IMG/VR virus record: IMGVR_UViG_3300036770_005220
Span: 1 to 20,077 of that record
Source: a virus
Length of the DNA stretch: 20,077 nt
Direction: 5' to 3' (one strand)
Part shown: positions 14,099 to 19,616 of the stretch, one piece after another
Layout: the number at the start of each line of letters is the position of its first letter
How positions within the stretch are numbered: position 1 is the first letter of the stretch
Notes under the pieces: model-generated
Told to the model about the DNA's origin: nothing
What the model saw: the letters and a program-made list of their open reading frames with translations, nothing else
Databases searched by the model: none
Made by a program: the position numbers and the translations under genes

Positions 14099-14659
14099 AT
14101 GAAAACCGTAGGCGATAGTTTGACTAAATTTGCAATCACTGGCGTCAAGCCAGGTGCGTTGACCCCAGATGATGCTTTTGAGACCGTCACAGACAAAAGC
14201 TTTGACGGCAAGTGGAAGGTAATAGTGTATTACCCCAAGGACTTTACTTTCGTATGTCCAACAGAAATCGTTGCCTATGATAAGTTGAACAAGGACTTTA
14301 CGGATCGCGATGCTGTGTTGTTGATTGGCTCAACCGACAACGAGTTCTGTAAGTTGGCATGGAAAAATGCCCATGAAGATCTCAAGAAAACCACTTGCTG
14401 GTTTTTTGCTGACACTGCCCGCGGCATTGCCTACGATGATGTCGATGGTCTAGTTGACCAACTCGGCATTTTCTATGCACCAGCCGGCGCAGCACTACGC
14501 GCAACTTTCATCGTTGATCCAGACAACGTTATCCAGCACGTCACTGTCAACAACTTGAATGTTGGTCGCAACGCCGACGAGACACTGCGTGTGCTCGATG
14601 CTCTTCAAACCGGCGAACTCTGTGCATGCAATCGCGCCATTGGCGGAGCGACGCTGTAA
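14099..14659 (+). CDS. ahpC: alkyl hydroperoxide reductase C (2-Cys peroxiredoxin)
   Basis: 186 aa, the usual AhpC length. It reduces hydrogen peroxide and organic hydroperoxides with a cysteine thiol. The peroxidatic site FTFVCPTEI gives C53; the C-terminal ELCACN (C175, C177) supplies resolving cysteines, and the double-Cys ending resembles the AhpC type that is paired with AhpD (mycobacterial type) rather than the AhpF-dependent enterobacterial one. Own promoter and a strong Shine-Dalgarno precede it, and its stop overlaps the ahpD start (TAATG). No truncation or lost residue is seen. Peroxiredoxins are rare in phages, so this is probably an acquired auxiliary metabolic gene. Confidence 0.95.
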   Translation: MKTVGDSLTKFAITGVKPGALTPDDAFETVTDKSFDGKWKVIVYYPKDFTFVCPTEIVAYDKLNKDFTDRDAVLLIGSTDNEFCKLAWKNAHEDLKKTTCWFFADTARGIAYDDVDGLVDQLGIFYAPAGAALRATFIVDPDNVIQHVTVNNLNVGRNADETLRVLDALQTGELCACNRAIGGATL

Positions 14660-15177
14660 TGACTGCCTGGGTTGATACCTTAAAGGACAACAGTATCCCT
14701 GACTATGCCAAGGATACGCGCTTGAACCTTGACGCAGTGATCAAACGCAGTTCATTGGCTCCGGAAGAAGCCGAAGCAGTGGCATTGGCCGCTGCTTTTG
14801 CCACAGGCAACACAAAACTGTGGACCTGGATCCAAAGCCAGATCGCCAACGACACTGAAGCAGAAGCCGCACTCACCGCTGCTGCATTGATGGCACAGAA
14901 CAACGTATGGTATCCCTATGTTGAAATGACCGGGGATGAACAGCTCCAGGGCTTGCCTGCACAGTTGCGCATGAATGCCATCAGCACGCACGGTGGTACC
15001 ACCCGAGAACGCTTCGAGGCCTACAGCCTTGCTGCCAGCATTGTTGGTAAATGCCATTTCTGTGTGAAAGCACACTACGACGGACTCAAGAAAATGGGCT
15101 ACACAGTAGAACAGCTTCGTGACATTGGTCGTATCGCTGCTGTGATCACATCGGTTAGTCGAATAGTTGAAAATTAA
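14659..15177 (+). CDS. ahpD: AhpD-like alkylhydroperoxidase/carboxymuconolactone decarboxylase family
   Basis: 172 aa from ATG 14659, coupled by TAATG to ahpC; an upstream in-frame start at 14626 would lie inside ahpC. The signature CHFCVKAH gives the redox pair C132/C135 and H139 of the AhpD fold, followed by the typical helix YTVEQLRDIGRIAAVI. In known systems AhpD passes electrons from lipoamide to AhpC and is itself a weak peroxidase. Gene order and coupling show the two proteins work together here. The electron source in this host is unknown; the phage glutaredoxin upstream is an alternative but this is speculation. Confidence 0.92.
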   Translation: MTAWVDTLKDNSIPDYAKDTRLNLDAVIKRSSLAPEEAEAVALAAAFATGNTKLWTWIQSQIANDTEAEAALTAAALMAQNNVWYPYVEMTGDEQLQGLPAQLRMNAISTHGGTTRERFEAYSLAASIVGKCHFCVKAHYDGLKKMGYTVEQLRDIGRIAAVITSVSRIVEN

Positions 15178-15777: not shown

Positions 15778-15857
15778 CTGCGCTCAAGGCGTCAAAACCC
15801 AGAGAGAAACGCAGACTTGACCGGGCTGTAAGTCATTGATTTTCAAGGACTTGTTGA

Positions 15858-15883
15858 CCCCGGGCAAAAACCCGGGGTTTTTT
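15858..15883 (+). terminator. strong rho-independent terminator
   Basis: CCCCGGG (15858-15864), loop CAAAAA, CCCGGGG (15871-15877) and a T6 run (15878-15883). It closes the ahpCD-EF-hand-lipoprotein unit and insulates it from the tRNA-array promoter that follows 12 nt later. Confidence 0.92.
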
Positions 15884-15895
15884 CTTATTATGCAC

Positions 15896-15929: not shown

Positions 15930-16060
15930 CCAGTGCTAGAGCGGAACGTGGCTGCGCAGAGCACTTTAATATCTGCAAACGGGCGGACAGGAAACATGAA
16001 AGGGATGGCGCAAACTTCCCTGGTAAGACTCCTGGGCAGGGCTTGACCCTGTCATGGTAT
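15930..16060 (+). ncRNA. structured leader RNA before the tRNA array
   Basis: The 130 nt between the promoter and tRNA-Thr hold no gene but several hairpins: AGTGCT (15932-15937) with AGCACT (15960-15965); an alternative GCAGA (15956-15960) with TCTGC (15972-15976); AGGGA with TCCCT near 15990-16022; and CAGGG (16037-16041) with CCCTG (16047-16051). It could be a leader removed by tRNA processing or a small RNA in its own right. It lacks tRNA features and I do not recognise a known RNA class. Confidence 0.5.
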
Positions 16061-16135
16061 GCCCCGGTAGCACAACGGTAGTGCAACTGATTTGTAATCA
16101 GTAGGTTGGGAGTTCGAATCTCTTCTGGGGCACCA
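16061..16135 (+). tRNA. tRNA-Thr(TGT)
   Basis: Acceptor GCCCCGG pairs with CTGGGGC; anticodon loop TTTGTAA (anticodon 16093-16095); T-loop TTCGAAT; encoded ACCA. Reads ACA. Its final CCA is the first part of an 18-nt inverted repeat that continues into the following RNA element. Confidence 0.93.
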
Positions 16136-16259
16136 TATTGAAGCACACTCGCCATTGGTCGTCGGCCTTGAGCGGTTGGCAAACCGGGACCGCACGACGA
16201 AGCAGCAATAGCCAGCGCGGTGGAAACGCCCATGGTGGGCAGAGTGTGCTTCAATATGG
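16133..16259 (+). ncRNA. structured RNA element 1, closed by 18-bp stem, between tRNA genes
   Basis: CCATATTGAAGCACACTC (16133-16150) is perfectly complementary to 16242-16259, enclosing about 90 nt; the pairing continues GCC/GGC past a bulged A. Inside are TCGTCG/CGACGA with a nested GCGGT/ACCGC hairpin, and a small hairpin GCG (16215-16217) - loop CGGTGGAAA - CGC (16227-16229). That hairpin loop recurs in the elements at 17983-18142 and 19500-19604. No reading frame is plausible. The 5' arm starts with the CCA of tRNA-Thr, so folding would compete with, or mark, tRNA 3'-end processing. Confidence 0.65.
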
Positions 16260-16339
16260 TTAGAGTCGGGTGACATGTAGGCGTTCTCTAAAACGTCGAG
16301 GGTTGGGATTCCCGAGCCTGCAACACAGGCACCATATTG
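16252..16339 (+). other. tRNA-like remnant or alternative-pairing element ending in ACCA
   Basis: CAATATGG (16252-16259) can also pair with CCATATTG (16332-16339), giving a second closed domain. It contains GGCGTT/AACGTC (anticodon-arm-like, but a 6-nt loop), a GGG-TTGGGAT-TCCC T-arm-like hairpin, and GCCTG/CAGGC followed by ACCA. The last 12 nt (GGCACCATATTG, 16328-16339) repeat the end of tRNA-Thr plus its flank (16129-16140). I read it as a decayed or tRNA-mimicking copy; a proper cloverleaf cannot be drawn because the 3' acceptor strand pairs locally. Confidence 0.4.
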
Positions 16340-16360
16340 CCATTGATTAAATATTTTACC

Positions 16361-17545
16361 ATGATGATAAAGATTTACATGCCAAGTGAACACCAAACCC
16401 CAATCGGCTGGGACCGATACCAGAGTGTGATCGTGGATTGGGAACCACCTGGCGTTGCATGGAAATATGTATCTGATATCCAAGATGCTGATTGGATCAT
16501 GTGTGTGATTAAATGGTATGATCTAGAAAAACAAATCGCATGGTTCCGTGCCAGGATCAGGCCCGATCAATTCGTGATCTTCATCAATGTTTATCATTCA
16601 GAAGAACAGCTGGGCCAGGTGTTTGAATCCCGCGACTGGCAGGATAACATAGATTTTTTCCAGCAGCATCAGCATAGGATTTGTTACGTTGATTGCAATA
16701 GCTGTGTACGAAATCAATATCCGGATGTGATATATTACGATTTCCTTTGGGAAAGACAACTAGTGTATTTTACGGAATATGAAAAACATGATTTGTCACG
16801 CCGCATACACACGAGATTTTCTACTGCAGAAATGTTTGCTCTTGAAGATATTAGTAAAACACCCGTGGCTAAACACTACCTTGCTGCCATGCGAGTCTGG
16901 TCAGAACAAGACGCGCCCCGTGGTCATTGGTACTCCTATGAGTCTCGTTCTCGATTTCGAGAGCTACTGCGAAACATCTTGGACGCAGACAAAGGCTATG
17001 TCAGCGATCACAAAAAAGGCGTGTTTATCCAACCGCAAGAGTACAAGCATTATATCAAACGTGATCTCGAAAATCCACAAGGGTGGTTCGCAGGAGGATC
17101 TTGGTATCCGGCACACAATCGTTATTATCAAGACAGTTTTGTCAGCGTGTATGTGGAAACCATTACTTTTGGTCACAGCTACAAACTTATAACAGAAAAA
17201 ACTTATGATCCTTTGATCAAAGGCAACTTTATACTGCCCATGGGATATCAGGGCATGGTCCAGGACATACTGGATCGAGGGTTCGTCTTGCCAGATTGGT
17301 TAGATTACAGTTATGACCAATTGCCAGACGCATCACGATTTGATGCCTATCTTGATTCTGTGCGATCTTTGTTGAACATGCGCCAGCATCAGTTATTTGA
17401 ATTGTATTGCCGGGACAAATATATTTTAGAGCACAATAGATCTATATTCTTTTCTACACCGCGAGTGAGTTTGTTGAGTCTTATACAAAACAATTTCCAA
17501 AATCGCGGATGTCATAAACAACCGGACCCATCGTCTAACGGTTAG
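16361..17545 (+). CDS. phage protein with GT10/fucosyltransferase-like C-terminus
   Basis: 394 aa from ATG 16361; 16364 and 16379 are alternatives and none has a clear Shine-Dalgarno. TTAAATA (16347-16353) just upstream resembles a late promoter -10, which would leave almost no leader. The C-terminal third reads FVSVYVETITFGH, then LITEKTYDPLIKGNFILPMG, then DRGFVLPDWLDYSYDQLPD, which follows the order of the donor-site block of GT10 alpha-1,3-fucosyltransferases (xTEKxYxPxxxGxxPI, then GFxxxxxxxDxSYD). The N-terminal two-thirds are aromatic and Asp-rich and not recognised. It may be a glycosyltransferase acting on host or virion glycans. The last 22 nt, including the stop, lie inside tRNA-Glu. 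Confidence 0.65.
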   Translation: MMIKIYMPSEHQTPIGWDRYQSVIVDWEPPGVAWKYVSDIQDADWIMCVIKWYDLEKQIAWFRARIRPDQFVIFINVYHSEEQLGQVFESRDWQDNIDFFQQHQHRICYVDCNSCVRNQYPDVIYYDFLWERQLVYFTEYEKHDLSRRIHTRFSTAEMFALEDISKTPVAKHYLAAMRVWSEQDAPRGHWYSYESRSRFRELLRNILDADKGYVSDHKKGVFIQPQEYKHYIKRDLENPQGWFAGGSWYPAHNRYYQDSFVSVYVETITFGHSYKLITEKTYDPLIKGNFILPMGYQGMVQDILDRGFVLPDWLDYSYDQLPDASRFDAYLDSVRSLLNMRQHQLFELYCRDKYILEHNRSIFFSTPRVSLLSLIQNNFQNRGCHKQPDPSSNG

Positions 17546-17598
17546 GACATTACCCTTTCACGGTAAGAATAGGGATTCGAATTCCCTTGGGTTCACCA
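17524..17598 (+). tRNA. tRNA-Glu(TTC)
   Basis: Acceptor GGACCCA with TGGGTTC; anticodon stem TTACC/GGTAA around loop CTTTCAC (anticodon TTC); T-loop TTCGAAT; encoded ACCA. Reads GAA. Its first 22 nt also encode the C-terminus of the preceding protein gene. Confidence 0.93.
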
Positions 17599-17603
17599 AT
17601 TAT

Positions 17604-17730
17604 GTGCGTTTCGTCTAAACAACGGACAAGACAGGGGGCCACATAAGTCTACAGTGGAAACACAACACTGAAAAGTGCGGTAGCGGTGGAATAACCTCTG
17701 AATGCGGGTTCGAATCCCGTAACGCACACC
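17604..17730 (+). other. interrupted tRNA-like gene with about 50-nt insert in the anticodon arm
   Basis: GTGCGTT (17604-17610) pairs perfectly with AACGCAC (17721-17727); a D-arm (GTCT 17613-17616 / AGAC 17629-17632) and a perfect T-arm (GCGGG-TTCGAAT-CCCGT, 17704-17720) are in the right places. The anticodon stem can be AGGGG (17633-17637) with CCTCT (17695-17699), but the loop is 57 nt instead of 7. The insert has CCAC/GTGG and a CACT-GAAA-AGTG tetraloop hairpin. Position 33 would not be U, so no anticodon can be assigned. The 3' end is ACCG, without full CCA, unlike every other tRNA here. Either a tRNA with a small intron or a tRNA-like RNA. Confidence 0.6.
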
Positions 17731-17751
17731 GTTTTTGTATTCTTGGGGTAA

Positions 17752-17802
17752 GATGATACACAGGCATCATCACGATAGTTCGCGGGTGTGTGGGCGACTA
17801 TC
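17752..17802 (+). repeat. two adjacent hairpins between tRNA-like gene and tRNA-Trp
   Basis: GATGAT (17752-17757) pairs with ATCATC (17766-17771) around an 8-nt loop. GATAGT-T-CGC (17774-17783) pairs with GCG-ACTATC (17794-17802) with one bulge. The 85-nt gap has no gene; the hairpins suggest a further structured spacer or processing signal. Confidence 0.5.
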
Positions 17803-17813
17803 ACTTATTATTT

Positions 17814-17887
17814 GCCGGGTTGGTCTATCGGTACGACAGGGGTCTCCAAAACCCTTAAGGGCGGTTCGACTCCGTCACCCGGTGCCA
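17814..17887 (+). tRNA. tRNA-Trp(CCA)
   Basis: Acceptor GCCGGGT with ACCCGGT (G1-U72 wobble); anticodon stem GGGGT/ACCCT around CTCCAAA (anticodon CCA); T-loop TTCGACT; discriminator G and encoded CCA as usual for bacterial tRNA-Trp. Confidence 0.9.
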
Positions 17888-17893
17888 TTTTAT

Positions 17894-17967
17894 TGAGGCG
17901 TCGTCTAACGGCAGGACAGCAGGTTTTGATCCTGCTTATCGTGGTTCGAATCCATGCGCCTCAGCCA
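17894..17967 (+). tRNA. tRNA-Gln(TTG)
   Basis: Acceptor TGAGGCG with CGCCTCA; anticodon stem GCAGG/CCTGC around TTTTGAT (anticodon TTG); T-loop TTCGAAT; discriminator G; encoded CCA. Reads CAA. Confidence 0.93.
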
Positions 17968-17982
17968 ACTTGGTGACCTGCA

Positions 17983-18142
17983 GGCCGGCCTGACGGGTTC
18001 ATCCTATCAGTGCAAGAGCTTTTCCGTTTTGGTAGCACTGATTGACACATGAGGTAGAACGGAATAGGTCATGCTGTCGGGGGGTATGACTGACAACAAT
18101 CCAGTAGCGGGAGAACTCGTGAACGATAGCCCCGGCCTTTTT
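17983..18142 (+). ncRNA. structured RNA element 2 with H-type pseudoknot, between tRNA-Gln and tRNA-His
   Basis: About 160 nt without a gene. GGCCGG (17983-17988) can close with CCGGCC (18132-18137), directly followed by T5. Stem ATCAGTGC (18006-18013) / GCACTGAT (18035-18042) is perfect, and TTCCGTT in its loop (18022-18028) is perfectly complementary to AACGGAA (18058-18064), a classic pseudoknot. GTCAT (18068-18072)/ATGAC (18086-18090) encloses a G6 run (18079-18084) that could pair with CCCC (18130-18133). A hairpin AGT-AGCGGGAGA-ACT (18103-18117) shares its 9-nt loop pattern with the other two elements. I know no named class that fits. Confidence 0.7.
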
Positions 18143-18144
18143 AC

Positions 18145-18221
18145 GTGACCGTTGTCAAGTGGCCTAAGACCCCGGGTTGTGATCCCGGTATTCGTTGGTT
18201 CGAATCCAACCGGTCACCCCA
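18145..18221 (+). tRNA. tRNA-His(GTG)
   Basis: Acceptor GTGACCG with CGGTCAC; anticodon stem CCGGG/CCCGG around TTGTGAT (anticodon GTG); T-loop TTCGAAT; C73 and encoded CCA. The base before G1 is C (18144), so the G-1 normally encoded in bacterial tRNA-His is missing. Confidence 0.9.
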
Positions 18222-18226
18222 TTTTT

Positions 18227-18321
18227 GCTCCTGTAGTTTAATGGTAGAACACCTGTCTTATACACAGGCTCAGGCGCCAGATTAGCGCACAGTACAGGTT
18301 CGAGTCCTGTCGGGAGCACCA
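18227..18321 (+). tRNA. tRNA with TAT anticodon (Ile-like) and long variable arm
   Basis: Acceptor GCTCCTG with CGGGAGC; D-arm TAGTTTAATGGTAGAACA; anticodon stem CCTGT/ACAGG around CTTATAC (anticodon TAT, 18259-18261); T-arm ACAGG-TTCGAGT-CCTGT; A73 and CCA. Between anticodon and T-arms there are 25 nt with a GCGC/GCGC stem instead of 4-5 nt, a class II feature not expected for Ile. It would read AUA if charged with Ile; identity is uncertain. It begins directly after a T5 run. Confidence 0.8.
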
Positions 18322-18330
18322 AGTTTTGAT

Positions 18331-18404
18331 GGGACCGTAGCTGGAAGGTCAAGCATAGGACTTTTAATCCTTCGACGAGGGTTCGATTCCCTCCGGTCCT
18401 ACCA
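18331..18404 (+). tRNA. tRNA-Lys(TTT)
   Basis: Acceptor GGGACCG with CGGTCCT; anticodon loop CTTTTAA (anticodon TTT) on a stem TAGGA/TCCTT with a terminal T-T mismatch; T-arm GAGGG-TTCGATT-CCCTC; encoded ACCA. Reads AAA. Confidence 0.9.
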
Positions 18405-18421
18405 ATCGCAACTGGTAGAGC

Positions 18422-18428
18422 ATAAATA
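18422..18428 (+). promoter_or_regulatory. possible late promoter element ATAAATA before HNH gene
   Basis: CATAAATACTCT closely follows the T4 late consensus. The expected start is about 18435, at the first ATG of the HNH gene, which favours the second ATG (18450) or a leaderless message. The preceding CAACTGGTAGAGCA (18408-18422) looks like a tRNA D-arm. Confidence 0.4.
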
Positions 18429-18434
18429 CTCTAA

Positions 18435-18857
18435 ATGAGAGCTCGACCAATGAAAGTGTATAACTGTGTTAACTGTGGAAAAGAAACAAAGTTTTGTCAT
18501 TCAAAAGTAAACAAGTATTGTACCCTAAAGTGCCAAGGGGAGCATCGCAATAAGGTTTGGTTTGTAGATAACAAACCTTTATTTGAAAAAGGTCTTTTAA
18601 AGAGTAGACCGGCTATCAAGAGATTTGTAGAATTAAGAGATGGATATAAATGCTCGATATGTGGGCAACTTCCCGAACACCGTGGTAAATCGTTAGTAAT
18701 GATATTAGATCATATAGACGGAAATGCAAGCAATAATAAACCGGAAAACTTTCGTTTAGTGTGTCCAAATTGTGACACTCAACTGCCAACATATAAAGCA
18801 AAAAATATTGGAAATGGTAGAGCAACGAAAGGAATGAAATGGTGCAGTAGGCTTTGA
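18435..18857 (+). CDS. HNH homing-type endonuclease with N-terminal zinc finger
   Basis: 140 aa from ATG 18435, or 135 aa from ATG 18450. An N-terminal zinc-binding segment has CVNCGKE, then FCHS and YCTLKC. The nuclease core has CSICG, then the catalytic ILDHIDGNASNN, ENFRLVCPNCDTQ and a final KN/GR basic end; this is the standard HNH-ribbon layout with D-H-x-D-G and a CPxC zinc pair, so it should be active. Base composition is clearly more A+T-rich than the flanking genes, suggesting recent acquisition. It sits inside the tRNA array directly after a D-arm-like fragment, as expected for a mobile endonuclease that targets tRNA genes. Confidence 0.9.
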   Translation: MRARPMKVYNCVNCGKETKFCHSKVNKYCTLKCQGEHRNKVWFVDNKPLFEKGLLKSRPAIKRFVELRDGYKCSICGQLPEHRGKSLVMILDHIDGNASNNKPENFRLVCPNCDTQLPTYKAKNIGNGRATKGMKWCSRL

Positions 18858-18914
18858 TTTAATTCTAGATCCTACCATGTTTTCTCCCTAGGTATTTGAC
18901 CGCCAGCGGGGTAC

Positions 18915-18921
18915 CTAAATA
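18915..18921 (+). promoter_or_regulatory. possible late promoter element CTAAATA
   Basis: CTAAATATTTT lies 39 nt upstream of the small membrane-protein ATG; the same 10-mer TAAATATTTT occurs at 16348-16357 before the GT10-like gene. A GATGG/CCATC hairpin (18930-18944) lies in the leader, ahead of the AGGA ribosome site. Confidence 0.4.
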
Positions 18922-18959
18922 TTTTGGGGGATGGCTAGACCATCTTCCTGAGGAAATAT

Positions 18960-19196
18960 ATGGAATCTTTAAACAAACTATTCACATCTGTGAGCGATTT
19001 CCTGGGCCACATCACCCACTTGGGTGTCAAGCTCATCGCCGTGGGTGTGGTGCTGCAGATACTTTTTGGGGCTGCAGTGCCCTTCCTAGGACTGGATGTC
19101 GTGGGTGCCATCACATCATTTGTGGCAGCCCTAGGCGACAAAGGTCTGGTGGGATTGGTAGCACTAGCAGTGCTGTACTGGGCCTTTAAGAAGTAA
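18960..19196 (+). CDS. small two-helix membrane protein, holin-like by topology only
   Basis: 78 aa, well placed behind AGGAA (18951-18955). Two hydrophobic stretches are visible: about 20-42 (VKLIAVGVVLQILFGAAVPF) and about 59-75 (GLVGLVALAVLYWAF), joined by an amphipathic DVVGAITSFVAALGDK linker, and it ends in a basic KK. There is no signal-peptide cleavage site. Size and topology would fit a class II holin, but similar small membrane proteins of unknown role are frequent in marine T4-like phages and no endolysin gene lies nearby. A strong terminator follows 25 nt after the stop. Confidence 0.75.
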   Translation: MESLNKLFTSVSDFLGHITHLGVKLIAVGVVLQILFGAAVPFLGLDVVGAITSFVAALGDKGLVGLVALAVLYWAFKK

Positions 19197-19219
19197 GAGT
19201 TCCAGTGTTGTCTCACAAG

Positions 19220-19245
19220 AACCCGCTGGCAACAGCGGGTTTTTT
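19220..19245 (+). terminator. rho-independent terminator abutting tRNA-Arg
   Basis: CCCGCTG (19222-19228), GCAA tetraloop, CAGCGGG (19233-19239), T6 (19240-19245). A strong terminator, yet the next base is position 1 of tRNA-Arg and no promoter lies between, so downstream tRNAs depend on read-through or on a promoter further up. Confidence 0.9.
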
Positions 19246-19322
19246 CTGCCCGTAGCTCAGCTGGATAGAGCATGAGCCTTCTAAGCTCAGGGCCACAGGT
19301 TCGAATCCTGTCGGGCAGGCCA
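19246..19322 (+). tRNA. tRNA-Arg(TCT)
   Basis: Acceptor CTGCCCG with CGGGCAG (C1-G72, an uncommon first pair); D-arm TAGCTCAGCTGGATAGAGC; anticodon stem TGAGC/GCTCA around CTTCTAA (anticodon TCT); T-loop TTCGAAT; encoded CCA. Reads AGA. Confidence 0.93.
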
Positions 19323-19327
19323 TATTT

Positions 19328-19412
19328 GTCCTTGGTGGTGAAATCGGTAGACACCACAGACTTAAAATCTGTCGGCGCAGCCGTGCCGGTTCGATTCCGG
19401 CCCAAGGCACCA
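19328..19412 (+). tRNA. tRNA-Leu(TAA)
   Basis: Class II tRNA: anticodon loop CTTAAAA (anticodon TAA) on ACAGA/TCTGT, variable arm CGGC-GCA-GCCG, T-arm GCCGG-TTCGATT-CCGGC, A73 and CCA. The acceptor is imperfect at its end: TCCTTGG faces CCAAGGC, giving a U-C mismatch at 1-72 (or one extra T if the mature end is G19328). Reads UUA. Confidence 0.88.
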
Positions 19413-19419
19413 TGATGAT

Positions 19420-19494
19420 GTTGCGGTGGCTGAGTGGTCAGGCAACAGTCTGCAAAACTGTGAAACGCAGGTTCAAATCCTGTCCGCAACTCCA
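19420..19494 (+). tRNA. tRNA-Cys(GCA)
   Basis: Acceptor GTTGCGG with CCGCAAC; anticodon stem ACAGT/ACTGT around CTGCAAA (anticodon GCA); T-arm GCAGG-TTCAAAT-CCTGT; discriminator U, as required for Cys identity; encoded CCA. Confidence 0.92.
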
Positions 19495-19499
19495 ATTTT

Positions 19500-19604
19500 G
19501 CTTGTGTGCCGCTGGTGCTGGCATCGCGAACCAGTGGCTGGAAAACTGCCCAAATCTGTCATGACTTTGGTCAGAGACGTGTGGAAGTGCAGAGGCACAC
19601 AAGC
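19500..19604 (+). ncRNA. structured RNA element 3, closed by 11-bp stem, between tRNA-Cys and tRNA-Asn
   Basis: GCTTGTGTGCC (19500-19510) is perfectly complementary to GGCACACAAGC (19594-19604), enclosing 83 nt. Inside are CTGGT/ACCAG, a hairpin CAGT-GGCTGGAAA-ACTG (19532-19548) and TGAC-TTTG-GTCA with outer GTC/GAC. The hairpin loop GGCTGGAAA and the flanking CCAG/GCCCA match the element at 16133-16259, as does the opening GCCnnTGGT. There is no reading frame and no tRNA feature. Confidence 0.65.
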
Positions 19605-19616
19605 ATCCTGAATTGA

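What the first reader, a model, noticed from the sequence alone, without database searches (positions are those of the whole stretch)
16133..19604. A repeated unnamed RNA motif between phage tRNAs
Three gene-free elements (16133-16259, 17983-18142, 19500-19604) each contain a short hairpin whose 9-nt loop fits N-G-S-K-GGARA: GCG-CGGTGGAAA-CGC, AGT-AGCGGGAGA-ACT and AGT-GGCTGGAAA-ACT. The 3-bp stem changes (GCG/CGC versus AGT/ACT) while pairing is kept, and each is preceded by CC/CCAG. Elements 1 and 3 also share GCCnnTGGT at the 5' side, GCCCA after the hairpin, and a long perfect closing stem (18 and 11 bp). This suggests one structured RNA family spread through the tRNA array; a role in tRNA processing or as independent sRNAs is inference.
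Basis: partly seen in the sequence, partly recalled or inferred. Interest (0 to 1): 0.78.

Follow-up and report, generated by a model that had tools for sequence, protein, structure and literature searches.

The report
Helix-closed RNA cassettes between phage tRNAs

Summary
The letters, gaps and closing stems described are present, but the proposed shared hairpin (N-G-S-K-GGARA) is not a family signature. Homologues break it: in E1's six distinct relatives and in E2's family, where a different, covarying stem occupies the place. E3 has no relatives found.

What is there is larger. E1 (16132-16260) belongs to an undescribed class of phage RNA elements. A 15-20 bp closing helix, 5'-ACCAUAUUGAAGCACAUU...AGUGUGYUUCAAUAUGGU-3', starts at the CCA of the upstream tRNA and often ends at the first G of the next gene. 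I recovered 245 distinct elements in 119 loci, 299:4 on the tRNA strand. The helix covaries far above shuffles, with 259 G.U against 21 A.C cells. The insides fall into 152 families, some found beside different tRNAs. Scanning with E1's inside alone returned seven relatives, all with the helix. No Rfam, isolate-phage or bacterial-genome match was found.

Best explanation: modular small RNAs co-transcribed in the array and cut out by tRNA-end processing, sealed by a common helix. The class is shown; release and function are inferred. E2 and the RNA after E1 (16258-16335, a covarying pseudoknot) are further new RNA families.

The parts
16132..16260 (+). E1: helix-closed RNA element; arms 16132-16150 and 16242-16260 (consensus arms ATATTGAAGCACACT 16135-16149 and AGTGTGCTTCAATAT 16243-16257), variable inside 16150-16242
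16061..16135 (+). tRNA-Thr(TGT) whose 3' ACCA (16132-16135) forms the outer part of the E1 helix
16258..16335 (+). E1b: CCA-ended RNA of about 76 nt with a covarying pseudoknot (TTAGAG with CTCTAA) and a 3' hairpin; separate new RNA family
17968..18144 (+). E2: separate RNA family filling the gap between tRNA-Gln and tRNA-His; conserved hairpin is 18107-18120 (GCGGG-AGAA-CTCGT)
19499..19605 (+). E3: orphan gap RNA candidate between tRNA-Cys and tRNA-Asn, closed by a 12-bp stem of other sequence; no relatives found

Best explanation
E1 is one member of a large class of modular phage small RNAs carried inside tRNA arrays. Each has a common closing helix, nearly fixed in sequence, that begins at the 3' CCA of the tRNA (or other CCA-ended RNA) in front and often ends at the first G of the RNA behind; inside it sits one of about 150 different insert domains. 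The array is transcribed as one precursor. The enzymes that make tRNA 3' and 5' ends cut on either side (possibly with RNase III in the long helix) and release the element as a small RNA whose ends are sealed by the helix. The helix serves as a common handle or protection and the insert carries the specific activity, most plausibly binding or decoying a host factor during infection. Shown: the class, its RNA-strand structure, its exact placement, and the reuse of the same insert at different array positions. Inferred: transcription, cleavage, stability, and any target.
For: Class: 299 elements on the tRNA strand and 4 against, 245 distinct; two-sided and one-sided scans of IMG/VR gave 20, 44 and more than 119 stretches. 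Helix as RNA: with one element per insert family (150), 96.9% of cells are paired, 14 positions have changes on both sides (shuffles: mean 5.5, max 10), 90 such cells (shuffle max 20), slid controls 27-51% paired, and 259 G.U against 21 A.C cells. Independent test: a scan with E1's inside alone found 7 relatives, all with the helix; of 300 insert matches in all held loci, 298 have paired flanks. E1's own inside has compensated pairs. Placement: 105 of 245 start exactly at A76 of a tRNA and 35 end exactly at G1 of the next. In 12 large contigs (104-400 kb) the exact matches to the arm lie in or close to the tRNA arrays. Movement: E1 sits after tRNA-Thr in the window, between tRNA-Leu and tRNA-Val in L337, and before tRNA-Met in L281/L303; 11 of 49 multi-member insert families occur after different tRNAs. 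Near-empty sites exist. Architecture match: a permuted tmRNA in L204 has a helix-closed spacer between its CCA and its next G.
Against: No expression data. The insides as a group fold only slightly better than shuffled (z -0.41). Many tRNA pairs in the same arrays have only 4-8 nt spacers, so the element is not needed for tRNA processing in general. Wobble bias and covariation would also be expected, more weakly, of a single-stranded DNA hairpin of that strand. About half of the elements are not next to a tRNA that ARAGORN recognises; many of those adjoin other CCA-ended RNAs, whose own reality is mostly inferred.
Confidence: 0.6

Rival explanations
1. DNA-level mobile cassettes: the conserved arms are recombination or transposition ends, like integron attC sites or a short palindromic element, that insert behind CCA ends; the RNA helix is incidental.
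For: Conserved inverted ends with variable inside, one orientation, same insert at different sites; one comparison shows a direct repeat ATACCATA at the insertion, another an empty site carrying the left end.
Against: No tyrosine recombinase domain in 12 large contigs and none obvious among recurrent neighbour proteins by eye. The same insert is kept with differently mutated but still paired arms. Arms vary through G.U intermediates (position 8: G.U 56, G-C 50, A-U 40). Exact fit to mature tRNA ends is natural for RNA.
Confidence: 0.2
2. Passive processing spacers: the helix only punctuates the precursor (for example as an RNase III site) so neighbouring RNAs separate; the inside has no function.
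For: Placement at the CCA/G1 junction, same architecture as the excised spacer of the permuted tmRNA, weak folding of insides.
Against: Insides form conserved families across phages, mean interior identity 0.88 with helix identity 0.92 against 0.87 between unrelated elements; E1's inside has compensated pairs; most tRNA junctions lack an element.
Confidence: 0.17
3. One reading: E1, E2 and E3 are one RNA family defined by the N-G-S-K-GGARA hairpin.
For: The pattern occurs once in each gap.
Against: Stem broken in relatives of E1, replaced by another covarying stem in E2; E1 and E2 have different relatives and folds.
Confidence: 0.02

Closest known systems
Intervening segment of permuted (two-piece) tmRNA
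   Same: Lies between a CCA end and the first G of the next RNA piece; in L204 it is closed by a helix with core AAGCATACT/AGTATGCTT close to the element's AAGCACATT/AGTGTGCTT
   Different: E1 follows a complete tRNA-Thr; elements occur at many junctions with about 150 kinds of inside; no tmRNA in the window
GOLLD and ROOL RNAs
   Same: Structured RNAs of unknown function encoded near phage tRNA islands (PMC12286853)
   Different: Hundreds of nucleotides long with fixed folds; no Rfam match here; no common closing helix with exchangeable inserts
T4 tRNA-cluster stable RNAs (RNA C and D; from memory, not checked)
   Same: Small non-tRNA RNAs co-transcribed with phage tRNAs
   Different: Not known to share a sealing helix or to be a multi-family class
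Integron attC sites (from memory)
   Same: Conserved inverted ends, variable inside, one orientation, arrays of small cassettes
   Different: No integrase found in 12 contigs; GTTRRRY-type boxes not at the ends; covariation runs through G.U pairs

Membership tests
Helix-closed tRNA-junction element class (defined here) | closing helix matching ATATTGAAGCACAYT...AGTGTGYTTCAATAT | tested here: met
   E1: perfect pairing, C-G in place of the usual U.G at one position. E2 and E3 do not match
Helix-closed tRNA-junction element class (defined here) | 5' arm starts at A76 of the upstream tRNA, same strand | tested here: met
   E1 starts at 16135 = A76 of tRNA-Thr
Helix-closed tRNA-junction element class (defined here) | inside has relatives that also carry the helix | tested here: met
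   7 of 7 E1 relatives
Helix-closed tRNA-junction element class (defined here) | released as a discrete small RNA | not testable with these tools
   needs RNA from infected cells
Rfam release 15 families | match at gathering score | tested here: not met
   only tRNA in the window
GOLLD / ROOL | covariance-model match | tested here: not met
Permuted tmRNA intervening segment | flanked by the two halves of one permuted tmRNA | tested here: not met
   window E1 follows a complete tRNA-Thr; no tmRNA found
Integron attC site | tyrosine recombinase (integrase) encoded in the same replicon | tested here: not met
   PF00589 absent from 12 contigs of 104-400 kb, several of which may be fragments

The most novel reading that the evidence does not exclude
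Large uncultured phages keep, inside their tRNA arrays, an exchangeable library of small effector RNAs: one conserved sealing helix that plugs into any CCA/G1 junction, around more than 150 interchangeable domains, spread between phages and used against host factors or defences.
Probability: 0.35. Interest if true: 0.93.

Novelty: categorically new. Interest (0 to 1): 0.8.

Why it matters
Phage tRNA arrays are usually read as codon-supply or tRNA-replacement islands. Here they also carry a large modular RNA class that tRNA finders and Rfam do not see, with hundreds of members from one virus collection. The placement suggests RNA genes that need no promoter or terminator of their own because they borrow the processing of tRNA ends. 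It makes the question 'what are the non-tRNA RNAs in phage tRNA arrays for?' directly testable, by RNA sequencing and by swapping or deleting insides, and gives defined families to test as decoys or inhibitors of host defences.

Tried and rejected
blastn of E1 and E3 against isolate phages: only short chance matches; the consensus helix ends and several element-rich stretches matched isolates only at tRNA genes, by chance, or not at all. E3 interior pattern: 8 contigs, none with tRNAs, and the matches look like coding sequence. Reading GCCnnTGGT as a tRNA-like D-arm: considered, not pursued, since relatives of E1 do not keep GCC. Amber-suppressor tRNA reading of 16260-16335: rejected, the CTCTAA loop is half of a conserved pseudoknot. 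Isolate-genome elements L188, L190, L203, L214, L216, L220 share only the GAAGCACACT arms, have other flanks and (where checked) no tRNAs, and were set aside. Rfam low-score hits in the window (anti-hemB, PsrR1 at 15806-15885) are below gathering score and overlap a terminator-like hairpin. Literature searches found no description of such elements in the held library.

Full report
OBSERVATION. The window is a 20,077-base IMG/VR virus fragment with eleven tRNA genes between 16061 and 19691. The 19-bp inverted repeat of E1 is far beyond chance; the 12-bp repeat of E3 is only suggestive. The exact hairpin pattern is rare (7 in 2.07 Mb), but it was derived from these sequences, so only relatives can test it.

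THE PROPOSED HAIRPIN FAILS. Relatives of E1 were found with a pattern from its inside only. In the alignment of seven distinct sequences the GCG/CGC stem is paired in 43% of cells and never covaries. E1 and E2 are thus two unrelated RNA families. E3 has no relatives in the loci held or with an interior pattern in IMG/VR.

WHAT E1 IS. A search for E1's closing stem in tRNA arrays of other phages showed the same stem with different insides in L091 and L136. Scans of IMG/VR for the two-sided stem returned 20 and 44 stretches, and a one-sided scan more than 119. The two-sided stem was not seen in one scan of 84,980 bacterial and archaeal genomes; that scan covers insides of about 21-81 nt only. 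Requiring only similarity of each arm to the consensus, not pairing, 299 elements lie on the tRNA strand and 4 on the other. With one element per insert family, 96.9% of helix cells are paired, 14 positions show changes on both sides, 90 cells are doubly changed (shuffle maximum 20), and wobble is almost entirely of the G.U kind on the tRNA strand, 259 to 21 with position 5 left out because it holds a recurrent A.C mismatch. One U.G pair is conserved in 123 of 150. This is what an RNA helix leaves behind; a single-stranded DNA hairpin of the same strand could leave a weaker version of it.

PLACEMENT. Of 245 distinct elements, 105 begin exactly at A76 of a recognised tRNA and 35 end exactly at G1 of the next one; others lie between RNAs that are not tRNAs but start GGT and end CC(A). 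In 12 large contigs of 104-400 kb, strong matches to the arm fall in or near the tRNA arrays; in one of them the nearest listed tRNA is about 2.7 kb away. L212 and L301, 96-97% alike around one junction, differ by the element standing in place of a 7-nt spacer between tRNA-Tyr and tRNA-Asp.

INSIDES. They fall into 152 families (103 seen once), 25-127 nt long; 11 of 49 multi-member families occur behind different tRNAs. Some insides are kept while arms change in compensated ways, and 298 of 300 matches to an inside have paired flanks. Eighteen of 245 contain a T-arm-like GGTTCGA motif against 0.2 expected, so some are probably tRNA-derived. E1's inside has compensated pairs. As a group the insides fold only weakly better than shuffled (z -0.41).

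HOW IT PROBABLY WORKS (inference). An RNA that begins at one tRNA's 3' end and stops at the next tRNA's 5' end would be set free by the enzymes that trim tRNAs, without its own promoter or terminator. The helix would seal its ends and give a common handle; RNase III cleavage inside the 18-20 bp helix is an alternative first step. The permuted tmRNA of the element-rich array L204 (ARAGORN and two Rfam models) has a spacer of the same architecture at the same kind of junction, and phage-borne permuted tmRNAs are known (PMC9004378). The diversity and turnover of insides fit an arms race with host factors, but no target is known.

RIVALS. A DNA cassette of integron type is disfavoured by the absence of tyrosine recombinases in 12 large contigs and by paired arms that drift under unchanged insides, but mobility of some kind is real and its mechanism is open. 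A purely passive spacer is disfavoured by conserved insides.

KNOWN KINDS. GOLLD and ROOL are phage RNAs near tRNA islands (PMC12286853) but are far larger and do not match. No held paper describes the class, and Rfam 15 has no model that matches the window beyond tRNA. I rate the class categorically new, with the reservation that literature outside the held library could not be searched and that no expression data exist.

Noticed in passing
window 16258-16335: A CCA-ended RNA of about 76 nt with a covarying pseudoknot (TTAGAG with loop CTCTAA) and a 3' hairpin; eleven sequences aligned, 11 of 14 pairs doubly changed, 0 of 500 shuffles as good. A new RNA family in its own right.
   Followed up: yes
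window 15940-16055: Conserved RNA-like leader just upstream of the tRNA array; matched in more than 20 other array loci; no Rfam match.
   Followed up: partly
window 17741-17806: 66-nt gap with two hairpins whose loops are complementary (ACACA / TGTGT), 98% identical in L004/L005 and found in L088, L091, L095, L101.
   Followed up: partly
window 17604-17730: tRNA-like gene missed by ARAGORN: acceptor GTGCGTT/AACGCAC, D-arm, T-arm GCGGGTTCGAATCCCGT, anticodon stem AGGGG/CCTCT, but about 49 extra nt in the anticodon loop with nested hairpins; no relatives of the insertion. A short intron or a non-decoding tRNA-like RNA.
   Followed up: partly
L204 5093-5467 (minus): Phage-borne permuted tmRNA, tag ANDDVYAMAA, betaproteobacterial type, in an element-rich array.
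   Followed up: yes
gaps between elements in L237, L256, L289, L310, L315: RNAs of 180-190 nt that look like two tRNA-like units in tandem with D-like and T-arms but no anticodon arm.
   Followed up: no
L091, L095, L101, L004, L005, gap after tRNA-Cys: A 220-440-nt conserved gap RNA containing GCGCTGGCAATGCGA, vaguely like E3's GTGCTGGCATCGCGA but not matched by profile search.
   Followed up: partly
window 14099-15177: Adjacent peroxiredoxin (AhpC family) and carboxymuconolactone-decarboxylase (AhpD-like) genes in a phage; AhpC relatives lie near tRNA arrays in several other phages.
   Followed up: no
window 18435-18857: HNH endonuclease gene inside the tRNA array.
   Followed up: no
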